A stretch of DNA of 39,715 nucleotides, taken from positions 1 through 39,715 of the forward strand of contig CAMZLM010000008.1 of NCBI GenBank assembly GCA_947311485.1, in the 5' to 3' direction. The notes under the pieces are model-generated. The model worked only from the letters and a program-made list of their open reading frames with translations. It did no database searches and was not told where the DNA came from. A program made the position numbers and the translations under genes. Origin of the DNA: an uncultured Paracoccaceae bacterium (GTDB lineage: Bacteria; Pseudomonadota; Alphaproteobacteria; Rhodobacterales; Rhodobacteraceae). This document shows, piece by piece, positions 20,504-31,482 of this stretch (position 1 is its first letter; each line of letters begins with the position of its first letter).

Positions 20504-21187
20504 TCATGCCGGGAACGGATTGATGCGCCGCCATTGACCAAGTCGGCGGATGTTGTAGACAAGGGTCTTCATCCCAATCTTGGCTTTCGCTCGCACCAGC
20601 CCAATGGTTTTCACCATGGTGCCGCCCATGTCGTTGCTCTGCGCCCCAAAGACATGCTCTACCACTGCCTGGCAGTGCATGCCCTTGCATGCACGAGAAG
20701 GGCGGCATCGGAGACATGATAGCGTCGGATCAGCTTGGCTGCGGTCGACATTGACGTGGTTCTTGTAGCCGAAATGGCTCTTGCCGTGTTTCTTGGTCCA
20801 GCGAGCGTCGACGTCCTTCTGGCATCGCTTTGCAGGCTTGTTTTCCCGGCCTTCCGGTTCCTCACAGCCTTTGATCGCGGCGTTTTCCTCGCGTGTGTTG
20901 TGGTTGCGCGGTACCGGCACAATGGGTGCATCCAGTATCTGACCGCCCCGCGCAATATAGCCATGCCGTGCCAAGTGCCGATCAAAGAGCTTGAAACGAT
21001 CATCCACCTTGCCCGCCTGCGCCAGCGCCTTGAACATCAGCACCGCATCCATCGGTTTGCGGCCCGCGCGGGATTTCCGCTCACTGTCAGGCTTGCGCCA
21101 GACCCGTTCCAAAAGCGGACGAAACTCTTCCCACGGCACCACCGCGTCAACCTCGACCAGCGGGTCCTTCTTCATATCCAAGCTCAT
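20504..21187 (-). pseudogene. IS5-family transposase remnant with internal deletions
   Basis: The translation follows an IS5-family transposase but lacks pieces. The start (PWEEFRPLLERVW, GRKPMDAVLMFKAL) jumps directly to AQAGKVDDRFKLFDRHLA, missing roughly 45 residues that normally hold the first part of the DDE domain. The middle (GQILDAPIVPVPRN, KPAKRCQKDVDARWTKKHGK, FGYKNHVNVDRS) then shifts frame: the expected AKLIRRYHVSDA is in the neighbouring frame. A second deletion leads to the genuine C-terminus VEHVFGAQSNDMGGTMVKTIGL. The open frame left is therefore not a working transposase. The element's terminal repeats could not be placed. Confidence 0.85.
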
Positions 21188-24364: not shown

Positions 24365-26719
24365 TCATTTTCCGTCTTTTCTATGCTGGCTGGGGGAGCT
24401 GCGCATTTGCAGTTCCACCAGTTTTTCACGGGTTTTCATCTGTTCGCGTACGGCCTGATCGGCACCGGCCAGATATTGCTTGGGCCAAGCCGCAAAATCA
24501 CGCACGCCATACCATGCCGCCGCTTGATGGGTGAAATAAGGGTTCCACATATGCGGTCGCCCAAGGGCCACCAAGTCGGCCCGTCTTGTGTGCAGGATAG
24601 TGTTGACCTGCGAGGCTTCGGTGATCGCCCCAACCGCCATGGTCGCCAGTTTAGGCACGTTACGAATGGCTTCGGAAAACTGGGCTTGATACATCCGGCC
24701 ATAAATCGGTTTTTGATTCGGAACAGTCTGACCGGATGACACATCAATCAGATCACATCCCGCATCGGCAAAGGCCTGCGAGAAGTAGAGGATATCCCCC
24801 TCGTTTATGCCGCCTTCCTTCCAGTCACTTGCTGAAATCCTGACGGACATCGGGCGATCCTGTGGCCAGACGGCGCGCATGGCTTTGAAAACCTCGAGCG
24901 GGTATCGAATGCGGTTTTCGGGGCTTCCGCCATAGTCATCTGTCCGCAGGTTGGTCAAGGGTGACAGGAACGAGGCCAGCAAATACCCGTGCGCGCAATG
25001 CAGTTCCACCATGTCAAATCCGGCACGTGCAGCCCGTTCGGTTGCGGCGATAAAATCATCACGCACACGATCCATTGTCAGGCGGTCTATTTCGGCAGGA
25101 ATAGCGCTGATACCATCCATCCAAGGCAAGGGTGATGCCGACACCAATGGCCAATTCTGCGCCGGATCCGGCAAAGGATAGTCCATCTTTTCCCAGCCAA
25201 CCTGTGTCGACCCTTTGCGCCCCGCATGGCCCAACTGCATACAGATTTTAGCAGGCGTATTGCCATGGATGAAATCGACAACGTCCCTCCATTGGTCCTC
25301 GTGTGCATCGGTCCACATGCCCGGACAGCCGGGCGTAATGCGGGCATCAGCCGAGGGGCAGGTCATTTCGGTGAAAATCAACCCCATGCCACCATTCGCG
25401 TGACCGCCGTAATGGACTTTGTGCCAGTCTGTCAGATTGCCGTTTTCGTCGGCGCTGTATTGCGCCATTGGCGACATGATTACGCGGTTTGGCAGTTCCA
25501 GATCGCGCAGCTTGAAATTGGCAAACATCGGGGTTGGACGGGTTTCACGCAGGTCCTGCCCTGTTTCGCGCAAGTGTCGCGCATACCATTCATCATCGGC
25601 TTTGTTCACAAAACCCTTGTCGCGCAGCATCAGGTTTTCATAGGTCACCGATTTAGCGCGGCACATAACCACCATGGCAAACTGCATCGGCTCCATGTCC
25701 CATGACCGCTCCATGTGCTCAAACCACGCCAGCGACACATCGGCATTATGCTGGATGATCTGAACCGGTGTACGGCGGGTTTCATCATAGACCTGGAATG
25801 CTTTCTGAACATCCGTTTCAGCGTGTTCTATAAGCGCATCGGCAAGGCCAATCGCGCAATCCATTGCCAATTTAGTACCCGAGCCGATTGAAAAATGGGC
25901 CGAAGCCTTGGCGTCGCCCAAAATAACAATGTTACCCGCAGACCAGTTTTCACAGAAAATGCGCGGGAATATCCGCCAGTAGGACCGGTTTAACAGCAAA
26001 GGATGGCCTTGCAGTTCCTCTTTGAAGATTTCCTCGAGCTTGGCTCCTGATCCGGGTTCGTCAAATTCCTCAAATCCATGCCCCTGCCAACAGGCTTCGT
26101 CCATCTCGAATACCCAGGTCGAGCGGCCTTTTTCGTATTGATAGGCATGGCCAATGATAATGCCATGTTCCGTTTCATGGAAAAAGTAATTGAATTCATC
26201 CATCGGGCGGGTTGATCCCATCCAGCAAAACCGGTTGGTTCGCATCGTCAGGGAGGGCTGAAACTGATCTTTGTAATGCTCGCGGATCTGCGATCCAATC
26301 CCGTCAGAGGCCACAACCACATCTGAATCTTTGAAACGTTCGGCGATTTCGGCAGCAGGTATTTGCACACCAAAAGTCATCTCCACACCCAATTCACGGC
26401 AGCGTTTTTGCAGGATTGTCAAAAGAGTTTGCCGCGATGTTCCGCAAAACCCGTTGCCGCCACAGCGAATTTCATGCCCCTTGAAATGGATCGCAACGTC
26501 CTGCCAATAGGCGAATTCGTCTTGAATCATTTTATAGGTTTCAAGGTCTCTCTTTAAAAACTCGTCCAGAGTGTCATCTGAAAATACAACACCGAATCCA
26601 AAAGTATCGTCGGGCTGGTTTTGCTCGAAAACCTCGATTGTCCAATCAGGGTGGGCCTTTTTAACAAGAATTGCAGTGTAAAGACCGCCGGGTCCCGCGC
26701 CGATTATGGTGATTTTCAT
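24365..26719 (-). CDS. Fused FAD monooxygenase / Old Yellow Enzyme reductase (2-aminobenzoyl-CoA or salicylyl-CoA type)
   Basis: A 784-residue two-enzyme fusion. The N-terminal half is a class A flavoprotein monooxygenase: GAGPGG (7-12), VVVASDGIGSQIRE and GDAKASAHFSIGSG near 290-310. The C-terminal half, from about residue 400 (FKLRDLELPNRVIMSPMAQYS), is an Old Yellow Enzyme barrel with QLGHAGRKG and HCAHGYLLASFLSP. This arrangement matches 2-aminobenzoyl-CoA monooxygenase/reductase and proteins annotated salicylyl-CoA 5-hydroxylase/oxidoreductase, which act on aromatic acyl-CoAs. No CoA ligase for such a substrate is adjacent. It stands alone between paa segments, with a palindrome upstream that could be its operator. 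Confidence 0.88.
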   Translation of the reverse strand: MKITIIGAGPGGLYTAILVKKAHPDWTIEVFEQNQPDDTFGFGVVFSDDTLDEFLKRDLETYKMIQDEFAYWQDVAIHFKGHEIRCGGNGFCGTSRQTLLTILQKRCRELGVEMTFGVQIPAAEIAERFKDSDVVVASDGIGSQIREHYKDQFQPSLTMRTNRFCWMGSTRPMDEFNYFFHETEHGIIIGHAYQYEKGRSTWVFEMDEACWQGHGFEEFDEPGSGAKLEEIFKEELQGHPLLLNRSYWRIFPRIFCENWSAGNIVILGDAKASAHFSIGSGTKLAMDCAIGLADALIEHAETDVQKAFQVYDETRRTPVQIIQHNADVSLAWFEHMERSWDMEPMQFAMVVMCRAKSVTYENLMLRDKGFVNKADDEWYARHLRETGQDLRETRPTPMFANFKLRDLELPNRVIMSPMAQYSADENGNLTDWHKVHYGGHANGGMGLIFTEMTCPSADARITPGCPGMWTDAHEDQWRDVVDFIHGNTPAKICMQLGHAGRKGSTQVGWEKMDYPLPDPAQNWPLVSASPLPWMDGISAIPAEIDRLTMDRVRDDFIAATERAARAGFDMVELHCAHGYLLASFLSPLTNLRTDDYGGSPENRIRYPLEVFKAMRAVWPQDRPMSVRISASDWKEGGINEGDILYFSQAFADAGCDLIDVSSGQTVPNQKPIYGRMYQAQFSEAIRNVPKLATMAVGAITEASQVNTILHTRRADLVALGRPHMWNPYFTHQAAAWYGVRDFAAWPKQYLAGADQAVREQMKTREKLVELQMRSSPSQHRKDGK

Positions 26720-26902: not shown

Positions 26903-27220
26903 TCATCCGCCCATAAAAACTGCGATCCAGATGCAACTCCCCGGCAGTGTCTCAAAAGTGGTAGAAATTGTTCTTGCGCACCTCCGGACAGGTTGAGTTT
27001 TGCGACGGTCTCGAATTTCGCGTTCCATCGCTTTGATCTTGGCGCGATCATCTGAAGTCTGACCGTCTTTGCGGTCGCTATTGATATCAGATTGTTTCAC
27101 CCAGCGTCGCAGCGTGCCCCTGCCGCATCCAATTTTTGGCGCAATGGCCATAACCGCCGCTGATTGATTGGCGTATTCATGCTCATGTTCAAAAATCATC
27201 CGAACTGCGCGGGCCCGCAC
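26903..27220 (-). pseudogene. IS3-family orfA remnant
   Basis: The frame reads RARAVRMIFEHEHEYANQSA, APKIGCGRGTLRRWVKQSD and KAMEREIRDRR, matching the helix-turn-helix and leucine-zipper parts of IS3-family OrfA. After that the expected RQANEILRKASAYF block is lost; a degraded version (ending GELHLDRSFYGR) is visible in another frame. No orfB (DDE transposase) is present, so the element cannot move. It occupies most of the 650-base gap between the monooxygenase/reductase gene and paaE. Confidence 0.75.
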
Positions 27221-28901: not shown

Positions 28902-29663
28902 TTACCAGCTCGCCCCCGGATAGGCGCGTTGCAGCCACTGCATAGAGGTCAGCACATGGCCCAGATGTTCCGTATGCGTCTTGCCGGTTTTGCCGCCCTT
29001 GTGGGTGAACCGGCTGTCCGGGATCGTTAGTGTGGCGCTGTCCATCACCCGCCCGATCAACGCGTCATAGTCATCGCGCAGGCTGGCCGGATCCGGTGCA
29101 ATGCCGGCCTTGACCAGTGTCGCATCCACATCATCGGACAGGAACATTTCGCCCACATAAGGCCACAGGTAATCCAGCGCCTTTTGCATGCGGGCGTGGC
29201 TTTCGTCGGTGCCGTCACCCAGCCCCACCACCGTGTCGCCGGAGCGTTCCACATGATAGGCGGCTTCTTTGCTGGCCTTGGCGGCAATTTCCGCAATGCG
29301 CGGATCCGTGCTGTTCATCAGCCGGCCCAGATTGATGCTCTGCCAAGCGTCAAACAGGAATTGCCGCATCAGGGTCTGGCCGAAATCGCCGTTGGGTAGC
29401 TCGACCAACAGCAGATTGCGGAAATCCCAGATGTCACGCAGCATTGCCAATGTGTCCGCATCGCGGCCCTTGCCCTCCACCTCACCGGCGAGCCCCAGCC
29501 ACAGTTGCGTTTGCCCGATCAGATCCAGCGCCGTATTGGCCAGCGCGATGTCTTCTTCCAGCACGGGGGAATGGCCGCACCATTCCGATACCCGATGCCC
29601 CAGAACCAGCGTATTGTCGCCAAGGCGCAACAGGTATTCAAACAAAGCCTGATCCTGTGCCAT
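28902..29663 (-). CDS. paaC: Phenylacetyl-CoA epoxidase structural subunit PaaC
   Basis: PaaC is the inactive ferritin-like partner of PaaA in the epoxidase core. It has RLGDNTLVLGHRVSEWCGHSP (positions 14-34 here), a helix with LRDIWDFRNLLLVELPNGDF, and SKEAAYHVERSGDTVVGLGDGT typical of PaaC. ATG 29663 overlaps the paaB stop (ATGTGATGG), so I prefer it to the GTG one codon upstream. The normal length of about 250 residues and its order after paaB match the canonical operon. Confidence 0.95.
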   Translation of the reverse strand: MAQDQALFEYLLRLGDNTLVLGHRVSEWCGHSPVLEEDIALANTALDLIGQTQLWLGLAGEVEGKGRDADTLAMLRDIWDFRNLLLVELPNGDFGQTLMRQFLFDAWQSINLGRLMNSTDPRIAEIAAKASKEAAYHVERSGDTVVGLGDGTDESHARMQKALDYLWPYVGEMFLSDDVDATLVKAGIAPDPASLRDDYDALIGRVMDSATLTIPDSRFTHKGGKTGKTHTEHLGHVLTSMQWLQRAYPGASW

Positions 29664-29947
29664 CACATGGACCCCACTTCTTCGGGGATGTCGAAAAACG
29701 TCGGGTGACGATAGACCTTGGAATTGGACGGCTCGTAAAACGCGCCCTTTTCTTCGGGGGAGGAGGCGGTGATGTGGGCGGCTTCCACCACCCAGATGCT
29801 GACGCCTTCGTTGCGTCGGGTGTAGACATCACGTGCGTTTTTCAACGCCATTTCCGCATCCGGTGCGTGTAGTGATCCCACGTGACGGTGGTTCATGCCG
29901 TGCTGGCCGCGAATAAATACTTCCCACAGGGGCCATTCGTTTTTCAT
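29663..29947 (-). CDS. paaB: Phenylacetyl-CoA epoxidase bridging subunit PaaB
   Basis: PaaB joins PaaAC dimers into the larger epoxidase complex. The 94-residue protein opens MKNEWPLWEVFIRGQHGMNH, with HVGSLHAPDAEMALKNARDVYTRR and a SIWVV strand, all typical. Its ATG overlaps the stop of the nuclease-like gene (ATGA at 29944-29947), replacing the usual direct junction with paaA. Translation of paaB therefore probably depends on ribosomes finishing the inserted gene. Confidence 0.96.
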   Translation of the reverse strand: MKNEWPLWEVFIRGQHGMNHRHVGSLHAPDAEMALKNARDVYTRRNEGVSIWVVEAAHITASSPEEKGAFYEPSNSKVYRHPTFFDIPEEVGSM

Positions 29948-30486
29948 GTTATTTCTCCTCTTGAAACAGAGCGTGATTGTTCGATCATTTCCACCCCTTC
30001 GGGCGGTAGTTTTGAAAATTCGGGATAGCCGTGTTCGACGGAAATTTTGCTAACCTCCAGAAACGCCAGCAAGGGCCGACTGCCGCCCTGTAGCAGGTGC
30101 CAGCACAGGGTTTTGACAATGCCGGCGTCGCGTAAAAACAGGTCTTTCTGAATTTGGTTGCGCACAAATTTGCTTAGACAGGTGTAGCCGCTTTTAATCT
30201 CTACCGCGCGCCGGACATGTTTATCCCAAACGTCAATTCGCCGCCGCCCAAAGGGCGTATCAAAGGATTGGGTGTCACGCACGATATCCTGTTCGCGGGA
30301 TTGGCCGGTGGCGGTTAAAGTGATCTCTCCCATCAGCTCGCCAAATTTACCGCGCGTGCTGTTTTGAATTGCTATAACCTTTTGCAGATACCGCTTTTCC
30401 ACCTGGGCAGGCAGTCGCCCGTATTTGGTGTGCAGCTCTGCCATAAAGGACTTGCGGTTATCCCTAAGATCCTGACGATACGACAT
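29944..30486 (-). CDS. Unknown protein with PD-(D/E)XK nuclease-like signature, inserted between paaA and paaB
   Basis: A 180-residue protein I do not recognise as any Paa subunit. It carries elements of the restriction-endonuclease fold in order: a helix GKFGELMGEI with Glu50; a strand with Asp85 (FGRRRIDVWD); Glu96-Ile-Lys98 in RRAVEIKSGY, the E-x-K half of the motif; then a helix with Gln111 and Gln113 before KDLFLRDAG and KTLCWHLL. Such spacing is usual in PD-(D/E)XK families, including toxin REase domains. The N-terminus (MSYRQDLRDNRKSFM) is basic, with no signal peptide or secretion domain. It starts 3 bases after paaA and overlaps paaB by ATGA, so it is co-translated with the epoxidase. 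Nuclease function is inferred only. Confidence 0.7.
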   Translation of the reverse strand: MSYRQDLRDNRKSFMAELHTKYGRLPAQVEKRYLQKVIAIQNSTRGKFGELMGEITLTATGQSREQDIVRDTQSFDTPFGRRRIDVWDKHVRRAVEIKSGYTCLSKFVRNQIQKDLFLRDAGIVKTLCWHLLQGGSRPLLAFLEVSKISVEHGYPEFSKLPPEGVEMIEQSRSVSRGEIT

Positions 30487-30489
30487 TCC

Positions 30490-31482
30490 CTATTCCGCCG
30501 CCGTTTTAGCCGCTGCCTTTTTCTTGGCGTGGGCCATCAGCCCGTCACGAACCCATTTACCATCGTCCCAGGCTTTGTTGCGCGCCGCCAGCCGGTCCAC
30601 GTTGCAGGGGCCGTTGCCTTTGATCACGTCGAAAAACTCCGACCAGTCCGGATCGGCATAGCTGTAATGGCCGGTGTCCTTGTTCAGGGTGATGCCCGGG
30701 TCGGGCAATTCCAGCCCGAGATATTCGATCTGTGGCACGGTCTGGTCGACAAATTTCTGCCGCAGCTCGTCGTTGGTATCCATTTTGATCCGCCAGGCCA
30801 TGGATTGCGCCGTGTGAACGCTGTCCTTGTCCGAGGGTCCAAACATCATCAACGCCGGAAACCACAGCCGATTCAGCGCATCTTGCGCCATGCGTTTCTG
30901 TTCCGGCGTGCCTTTGGCCATTTTCATCATGATGTGAAAACCCTGCCGCGCGTGAAAGCTTTCTTCCTTGCAGATCCGCACCATGGCGCGGGAATAGGGA
31001 CCATAGGAGGTGCGTTGCAAGGCCACCTGATTGATGATCGCCGCGCCATCCACCAGCCAGCCAACCGCGCCCATATCGGCCCAGTTCAGGGTAGGGTAGT
31101 TGAAGATCGATGAATATTTCATCCGTCCGGCCAGCAGATCTTCGGTCAGGTCGTCACGGGTGACGCCCAGCGTTTCCGCCGCGCAATAGAGGTAAAGCCC
31201 GTGGCCGGCCTCGTCCTGTACTTTGGCCAACAGGATCGCCTTGCGTTCCAGTGTGGGCGCGCGGGTGATCCAGTTGCCTTCGGGCAATTGACCAACGATT
31301 TCCGAATGGGCGTGCTGTCCGATTTGCCGGATCAGGGTTTTACGATAATCATCCGGCATCCAGTCTTTGGGTTCGATCTTTTCGCCCCGATCAATCCGGT
31401 CTTGAAAATCGCGTTCCTCCGGTGTCATTTCTTCGGGGGATTTGACGCCGGAACCCGCCGTCTTAACCATTTGTGCATACAT
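30490..31482 (-). CDS. paaA: Phenylacetyl-CoA epoxidase catalytic subunit PaaA
   Basis: PaaA is the di-iron subunit that epoxidises the ring of phenylacetyl-CoA using O2. The 330-residue ferritin-like protein has [19 protein letters not shown] (51-69), the iron-binding [10 protein letters not shown] (Glu91, His94) and [11 protein letters not shown] (Glu173-Glu174, His177), as in other PaaA proteins. The C-terminus is Lys/Ala-rich and variable. It begins 12 bases after the thiolase stop. Downstream, the nuclease-like gene separates it from paaB, unlike the usual paaA-paaB contact. Confidence 0.97.

What the first reader, a model, noticed from the sequence alone, without database searches (positions are those of the whole stretch)
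29944..30486. Nuclease-like gene locked inside the phenylacetyl-CoA epoxidase operon
Seen: a 180-residue ORF sits between paaA (3-base gap) and paaB (ATGA overlap), where these genes normally touch. Its sequence has Glu50, Asp85 and Glu96-x-Lys98 in the order of the PD-(D/E)XK fold. Known: epoxidase complexes are PaaABCE with PaaD for maturation; a nuclease-like subunit is not part of them. Inference: it could be a domesticated nuclease-fold protein with a new role (regulation, mRNA control, complex assembly) or a toxin-like gene tied to an operon. It may be undescribed.
Basis: partly seen in the sequence, partly recalled or inferred. Interest (0 to 1): 0.75.

Follow-up and report, generated by a model that had tools for sequence, protein, structure and literature searches.

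The report
Stray nuclease gene in phenylacetate operon
One bacterium carries a small gene for a nuclease-like protein, related to the killing tips of bacterial toxins, wedged between two genes for breaking down phenylacetate; its relatives lack it, so it is most likely an acquired passenger and not part of the pathway.

Summary
In detail: a 180-codon ORF (29944-30486, minus strand) lies between paaA (3-base gap) and paaB (ATGA overlap). The fold guess is supported: residues 73-150 are homologous to a family of toxin tips, with Asp85, Glu96-x-Lys98, Gln111, Lys114-Asp115 and Trp129-His130 kept. AlphaFold2 gives a confident core whose best (weak) PDB matches are mostly PD-(D/E)XK nucleases. 'Locked inside the operon' is not supported. 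Of 105 paaA|paaB junctions examined, only this one holds the gene; the two closest relatives have a 10-base spacer. The ORF is lowest of 19 window genes in GC, GC3 and codon fit, and its last residues are read from the old paaB leader. Ten of the 104 other junctions hold something else (VOC/glyoxalase, DUF3291, DUF1877, a putative membrane protein, a relic), so the junction is a recurrent insertion slot. Unlike the toxin tips, this gene has no trunk and no recognised immunity gene. Best reading: a horizontally acquired, probably active solitary nuclease riding in the operon. Nothing found supports a role in the epoxidase or its regulation; function was not tested. The related toxin tips and their immunity-like partners have no Pfam model.

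The parts
29944..30486 (-). 180-aa solitary nuclease-like ORF; toxin-tip-like PD-(D/E)XK domain at residues 73-150
30490..31482 (-). paaA, upstream neighbour
   Evidence: PF05138, E 1.1e-96
29663..29947 (-). paaB, downstream neighbour, ATGA overlap with the ORF
   Evidence: PF06243, E 2.5e-44
30487..30492 (-). left junction: end of the paaA stop codon and the 3-base spacer before the ORF start
29945..29961 (-). right junction: old paaB leader (AGGAGAAATAACATG), now also read as the last codons of the ORF
   Evidence: alignment with L016 and L017

Best explanation
The ORF is a solitary PD-(D/E)XK nuclease of the kind found at the tips of RHS/CdiA-type polymorphic toxins. One lineage acquired it and it landed in the short paaA|paaB spacer, a site that has taken other small genes in several relatives. 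Shown: place, homology, conserved catalytic-type residues, predicted core, absence from relatives, junction anatomy. Inferred: it is transcribed with the paa operon and translated by coupling to the paaA stop; it holds a metal with Asp85 and Glu96 (Glu50 uncertain), uses Lys98, and cuts nucleic acid; it is a passenger (captured toxin domain or solitary defence-type nuclease) with no part in epoxidation. How the cell tolerates it (low activity, changed target, or an unrecognised immunity protein) is open.
For: Homology to toxin tips: single-genome hit E 5.8e-6, 33-34% identity with 30 invariant columns, hhalign 98.8%, E 1.3e-16. Residues E96, K98, G100-Y101-T102, K114-D115, L118, W129-H130 invariant in 15 of 15 rows, D85 and Q111 nearly so. 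Core pLDDT 92-97; 13 of the first 20 PDB matches are nucleases by title. Absent from 104 of 104 other junctions; sister rows L016/L017 (100/96 support) have a 10-base spacer and no match elsewhere in their genomes (G010, G018). Lowest GC, GC3 and codon fit of 19 genes. Ten other junctions hold other genes or a relic.
Against: Foldseek E-values are weak (best 0.03) and none passes 0.001; residues 44-68 with Glu50 are not modelled with confidence; the single-sequence model is uninformative. Recent transfer rests on one genome, a draft of 222 contigs. The 784-aa ORF at 24365 is nearly as low in GC and GC3, and the codon index was trained on the other 18 genes, which favours them. Activity is untested.
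Confidence: 0.62

Rival explanations
1. A solitary anti-phage or anti-mobile-element nuclease whose expression happens to ride on a catabolic operon.
For: A free-standing relative in G642 (243 aa, 40% identity over 72 residues; shared EIKSG form and upstream region) is encoded just after a 1018-aa TIR protein (PF13676, E 3.8e-20), with a recombinase-like gene nearby (by eye).
Against: No PADLOC or PHROGs hit; only one such relative was found; no defence genes were recognised beside the window ORF.
Confidence: 0.2
2. A stranded toxin tip that is inactive or on its way to decay.
For: No RHS repeat in the own genome (CdiA-type trunks were not searched) and no immunity relative found; the C-terminus runs into the old paaB leader.
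Against: Full open frame with start codon, key residues present.
Confidence: 0.12
3. A domesticated nuclease-fold protein that regulates or helps assemble the epoxidase.
For: Tight packing with paaA and paaB.
Against: Absent from 104 of 104 other junctions; other, unrelated genes are packed as tightly there, for example L093 and L112, so packing is no sign of shared function.
Confidence: 0.04

Closest known systems
Toxin tips with the AHESKVGYT motif, without a Pfam model here (L002, L035-L047, L053)
   Same: Homologous over residues 73-150 with the same catalytic-type residues
   Different: They end larger frames in 11 of 15 cases (226 codons or more; the other 4 frames are 51-101 codons) and all 15 have a related immunity-like ORF just downstream by eye; the window gene stands alone, has EIKSG for ESKVG, and carries about 70 residues before the domain and about 30 after it
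Tox-REase-7 (PF15649) and the other Tox-REase families of Zhang et al. 2012 (PMC3482391, passages)
   Same: Same superfamily by motif: GxxxE (46-50), ExK (96-98) and Q (111) are present
   Different: IxD is not met exactly (R83-I84-D85) and the Pfam model does not match in the own genome at E 10 or less
Free-standing nuclease beside a TIR gene in G642 (L055:6070-6801)
   Same: EIKSG form, related upstream region, no trunk
   Different: About 90 more residues at the N-terminus and a TIR gene as neighbour
Orphan cdiA-CT/rhs-CT modules (PMC4927057, passages)
   Same: Toxin tips displaced from their trunk
   Different: Described with immunity genes and near cdi/rhs loci

Membership tests
PD-(D/E)XK nuclease superfamily | Core strands and helix carrying D and (D/E)xK on neighbouring strands | tested here: met
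   Strands 71-77, 80-88 (D85), 93-98 (E96, K98), helix 106-120 (Q111), strand 126-131; pLDDT 92-97. Which residues mark the fold is family knowledge.
PD-(D/E)XK nuclease superfamily | Structural match to solved members | tested here: inconclusive
   First 20 PDB rows: 13 nucleases by title, 4 more members as I recall (AF1548, TseT, SSO0001, FANCM), 3 unrelated; best E 0.03
PD-(D/E)XK nuclease superfamily | Metal-dependent nuclease activity | not testable with these tools
   Needs an assay
Polymorphic toxin system | Toxin domain homologous to C-terminal toxin tips | tested here: met
Polymorphic toxin system | Trafficking trunk fused to the toxin domain | tested here: not met
   180-aa ORF with its own start, directly after the paaA stop
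Polymorphic toxin system | Linked immunity gene | tested here: not met
   Next gene is paaB; immunity profile A5 finds nothing in the own genome at E 10 or less (no positive control; genome 96.7% complete)
Tox-REase-7 (PF15649) | Match to the Pfam model | tested here: not met
   No match at E 10 or less in the own genome (of 14 controls 1 rings, 0 over the cut-off) and none
Phenylacetyl-CoA epoxidase component | Presence with paaA and paaB across genomes | tested here: not met
   0 of 104 other junctions
Phenylacetyl-CoA epoxidase component | Physical association with PaaABCE | not testable with these tools
   Needs an experiment

The most novel reading that the evidence does not exclude
A nuclease of toxin-tip ancestry works as a solitary conditional weapon or defence enzyme whose dose is set by aromatic-acid catabolism, with tolerance by a means other than the family's usual immunity protein.
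Probability: 0.1. Interest if true: 0.7.

Novelty: new variant of a known kind. Interest (0 to 1): 0.36.

Why it matters
It shows a toxin-type nuclease sitting inside a core catabolic operon without its usual partner, and that the paaA|paaB spacer is a recurrent landing site for small genes among relatives of this bacterium. If the protein is active, how the cell lives with it is a direct, testable question. The survey also turned up a toxin/immunity pair spread over several phyla that has no Pfam model in the copy searched.

Tried and rejected
Profile libraries with the window protein gave nothing at threshold: Pfam (RmuC E 0.11, below cut-off), NCBIfam, PADLOC, PHROGs. PDB by sequence gave none, and profiles A2 and A3 only rows at E 0.36 or worse. 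Single-protein scans: genome contigs 0 relatives among 34 stretches, viral contigs 0 of 3 (8), A4 in viral contigs 0 of 31. Phages: one record at E 0.5. L049's protein found nothing in plasmids or phages. A2 in 385 genomes of the class found only the own gene.

Rejected matches: of the 10 other genomes at E 0.1 or less, only G357 stood up. L009 lies inside a 231-aa frame of another kind (it still scores 2.8e-5 in the small database), L013 lies in no listed gene frame. L005-L008, L010-L012 and the second place in the own genome (L014) were not opened and were dropped because E was above 0.01. The Cupriavidus match (L003) lies opposite annotated genes. L051 (G590, E 0.003) was dropped as chance; L050 (G672, E 0.001) may be a distant member and was left out of A2. 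Burkholderia and Aliiroseovarius hits were not fetched.

The single-sequence model (116) is all-helical at pLDDT 38.9 and was set aside. No long inverted ends that would mark a transposon (112). Promoter and terminator scans (95) were close to the shuffled background and were not used.

Full report
OBSERVATION. On the minus strand the window reads thiolase, paaA, ORF, paaB, paaC, paaD, paaE. The ORF (29944-30486, 180 aa) starts three bases after the paaA stop and ends in an ATGA overlap with paaB. Glu50, Asp85, Glu96 and Lys98 are as described. The first-stage reader saw this correctly.

HOMOLOGY. No library family matched at threshold. With the window protein alone, 1 of 101 relatives (itself) and 11 of 390 genomes of the order at E 0.1 or less had a match; of the latter only G357 is convincing (E 5.8e-6), at the very C-terminus of a 2226-codon frame with RHS-type repeats by eye, followed by a 182-codon ORF. 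A plasmid search (6 records at E 1 or less, best 2e-4, all under 60% identity) pointed to a similar domain in Rhizobium: in the record fetched it sits in a 236-codon gene just after a hemagglutinin-type frame, and two sister records annotate a hemagglutinin repeat-containing protein there. The three-way alignment has 33-34% identity and 30 invariant columns. It brought 13 loci from genome contigs (L037 is the same RHS gene as G357's, judged by equal contig length) and 2 from viral contigs. Set together without the window these make 15 tips: in 11 of 15 the domain ends a frame of 226 codons or more, in 4 (L039, L042, L044, L045) the frame is only 51-101 codons; by eye all 15 have a related ORF just downstream. 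Eleven of those downstream ORFs align with 9 invariant columns; four were left out (one cut by a contig end). The 15-tip profile against the window plus its free-standing relative gives hhalign probability 98.8, E 1.3e-16, over residues 73-150. In the 15-row alignment that includes the window (14 tips), Ala94, Glu96, Lys98, Gly100-Tyr101-Thr102, Lys114-Asp115, Leu118 and Trp129-His130 are invariant; Arg82, Asp85 and Gln111 are nearly so. The window differs at two otherwise near-invariant columns: Ile97 for Ser and Ser99 for Val. The tips match no Pfam or NCBIfam model over a cut-off, the best NCBIfam row being E 0.006; the Rhizobium gene matches DUF6862 in its first 60 residues, outside the tip. 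The 11 immunity-like proteins match no Pfam model better than E 0.011; only two of them were run against NCBIfam.

FOLD. AlphaFold2 with the 15-row alignment: mean pLDDT 76.6, pTM 0.54; blocks from 71 to 150 at 92-97, with strands 71-77, 80-88, 93-98, helix 106-120, strand 126-131, helix 137-145. Asp85 and Glu96-x-Lys98 lie on neighbouring strands and Gln111 on the next helix, as in PD-(D/E)XK enzymes (family knowledge). Foldseek against the PDB is weak (481 rows at E 10 or less, none at 0.001 or less, best 0.03), but 13 of the first 20 rows are nucleases by title (nine Mus81-Eme1 chains, NucS twice, EcoT38I, T7 endonuclease I), four more are members as I recall, three are unrelated (IF2, ClpP twice). 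Viral models start with a phage endonuclease I at E 0.004. Residues 44-68, with Glu50, are not modelled with confidence. The model without alignment is uninformative and differs.

SURVEY OF THE JUNCTION. paaA was sought in 61 relatives (14 with a match; 12 are paaA at 65% identity or more, own included) and in 218 genomes of the family (98 at E 1e-100 or less, own included). I examined 105 junctions: 12, 29 new loci, and 64 fetched. Of the 98, G034 and G035 were already in hand; G1192 and G1215 (partial matches) were left out. The gap from paaA stop to paaB start is 200 bases or less in 94 of 104 other genomes and over 300 in 10 of 104. None of the 104 has the nuclease by tblastn. The ten hold four VOC/glyoxalase genes over the Pfam cut-off, three DUF3291 genes, one DUF1877 gene, one small protein without a Pfam hit that looks membrane-spanning, and in L021 a stretch without an intact gene that by eye resembles a broken VOC gene. 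On a PaaB+PaaC tree of the 105 the occupied junctions are scattered among empty ones. The tree tool's counts (which ignore empty rows) need two changes each for VOC and DUF3291 but starred branches force only one each, so separate origins within a family are not proven; five different kinds of content do speak for repeated insertion. The window's row groups with L016/L017 (100/96), and L066 lies next (100/95); all three lack the gene. G010 and G018, the genomes of L016 and L017, have no match anywhere (G018 is only 70% complete).

ANATOMY OF THE INSERT. L017 reads paaA TAG, GAGAATTAAC, paaB ATG. The window has 532 more bases (gap 542 against 10). The left flank reads GAATAGG and the right flank AGGAGAAATAACATG, so AGG is shared, which fits a tiny duplication or microhomology (inference). 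The ORF's last residues and stop are read from this old paaB leader. No long inverted ends were found. GC is 51.4% against 52.9-64.8% in 18 other window genes; GC3 0.567 and the codon-fit index 0.589 are the lowest of 19. This suggests recent foreign origin, but the index was trained on those 18 genes and the 784-aa ORF at 24365 is nearly as low in GC and GC3, so composition alone is weak.

IMMUNITY AND TRUNK. The immunity profile finds nothing in the own genome at E 10 or less (the tool warns that an empty answer without a positive control shows little). A single immunity query gave only E 0.34 in a 36-codon frame. No RHS repeat was found (2 of 14 control genomes ring). CdiA-type trunks were not searched. 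The assembly is 96.7% complete in 222 contigs, so absence is likely but not certain.

A FREE-STANDING RELATIVE. In G642 a 243-aa protein shares the EIKSG form and the preceding region with the window protein (40% identity over 72 residues). Its gene follows a 1018-aa TIR protein on the same strand. It was found with the three-row profile (E 3.8e-6; 4 of 398 phylum genomes with a match, own included); the second phylum search (3 of 398) was built from it and adds only G672. This keeps a defence role open.

MECHANISM. Most likely it is a metal-dependent nuclease made when the phenylacetate genes are on, by coupling to paaA. Target, activity and benefit are unknown. I found no evidence for a role in the epoxidase. 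The complex is described as PaaABCE, with PaaD not needed in vitro (PMC7497051, passages), and a 2026 survey reports strong positional conservation of paaA, paaB and paaC (PMC13186573, passages). Library searches joining this epoxidase or operon with nuclease, Rhodobacter or insertion gave 2, 3 and 6 papers (listings), none of which by title or abstract start describes such a gene. Displaced toxin tips are known as orphan modules, but as toxin/immunity pairs beside their trunk genes (PMC4927057, passages).

VERDICT. Real gene, right fold, wrong emphasis: a one-lineage passenger in a recurrent insertion slot.

Noticed in passing
paaA|paaB junction in L083, L089, L143, L108, L093, L111, L112, L116, L086, L021: Ten of 104 other genomes carry another gene or a relic at the same junction (VOC, DUF3291, DUF1877, putative membrane protein), often packed against the paaA stop. 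The recurrence of VOC and DUF3291 may hint at a metabolic link.
   Followed up: partly
L002, L035-L047, L053 and the ORFs just downstream: A toxin-tip family (AHESKVGYT) with its immunity-like partner in Pseudomonadota, Bacillota, Bacteroidota and others (phyla judged from the record titles), without a Pfam model for either part.
   Followed up: partly
L055:2939-6801: A TIR protein gene directly followed by a free-standing nuclease of the window protein's form, with a recombinase-like gene nearby: a possible defence locus.
   Followed up: partly
window 26903-27220 and 20504-21187: Transposase remnants: HTH_Tnp_1 (22.8 bits, cut-off 24.1) downstream of paaE and DDE_Tnp_1 (27.7 bits, cut-off 23).
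   Followed up: no
window 24365-26719: A 784-aa ORF that by eye joins a flavin monooxygenase half to an old-yellow-enzyme-like half; its GC and GC3 are nearly as low as the nuclease gene's.
   Followed up: no
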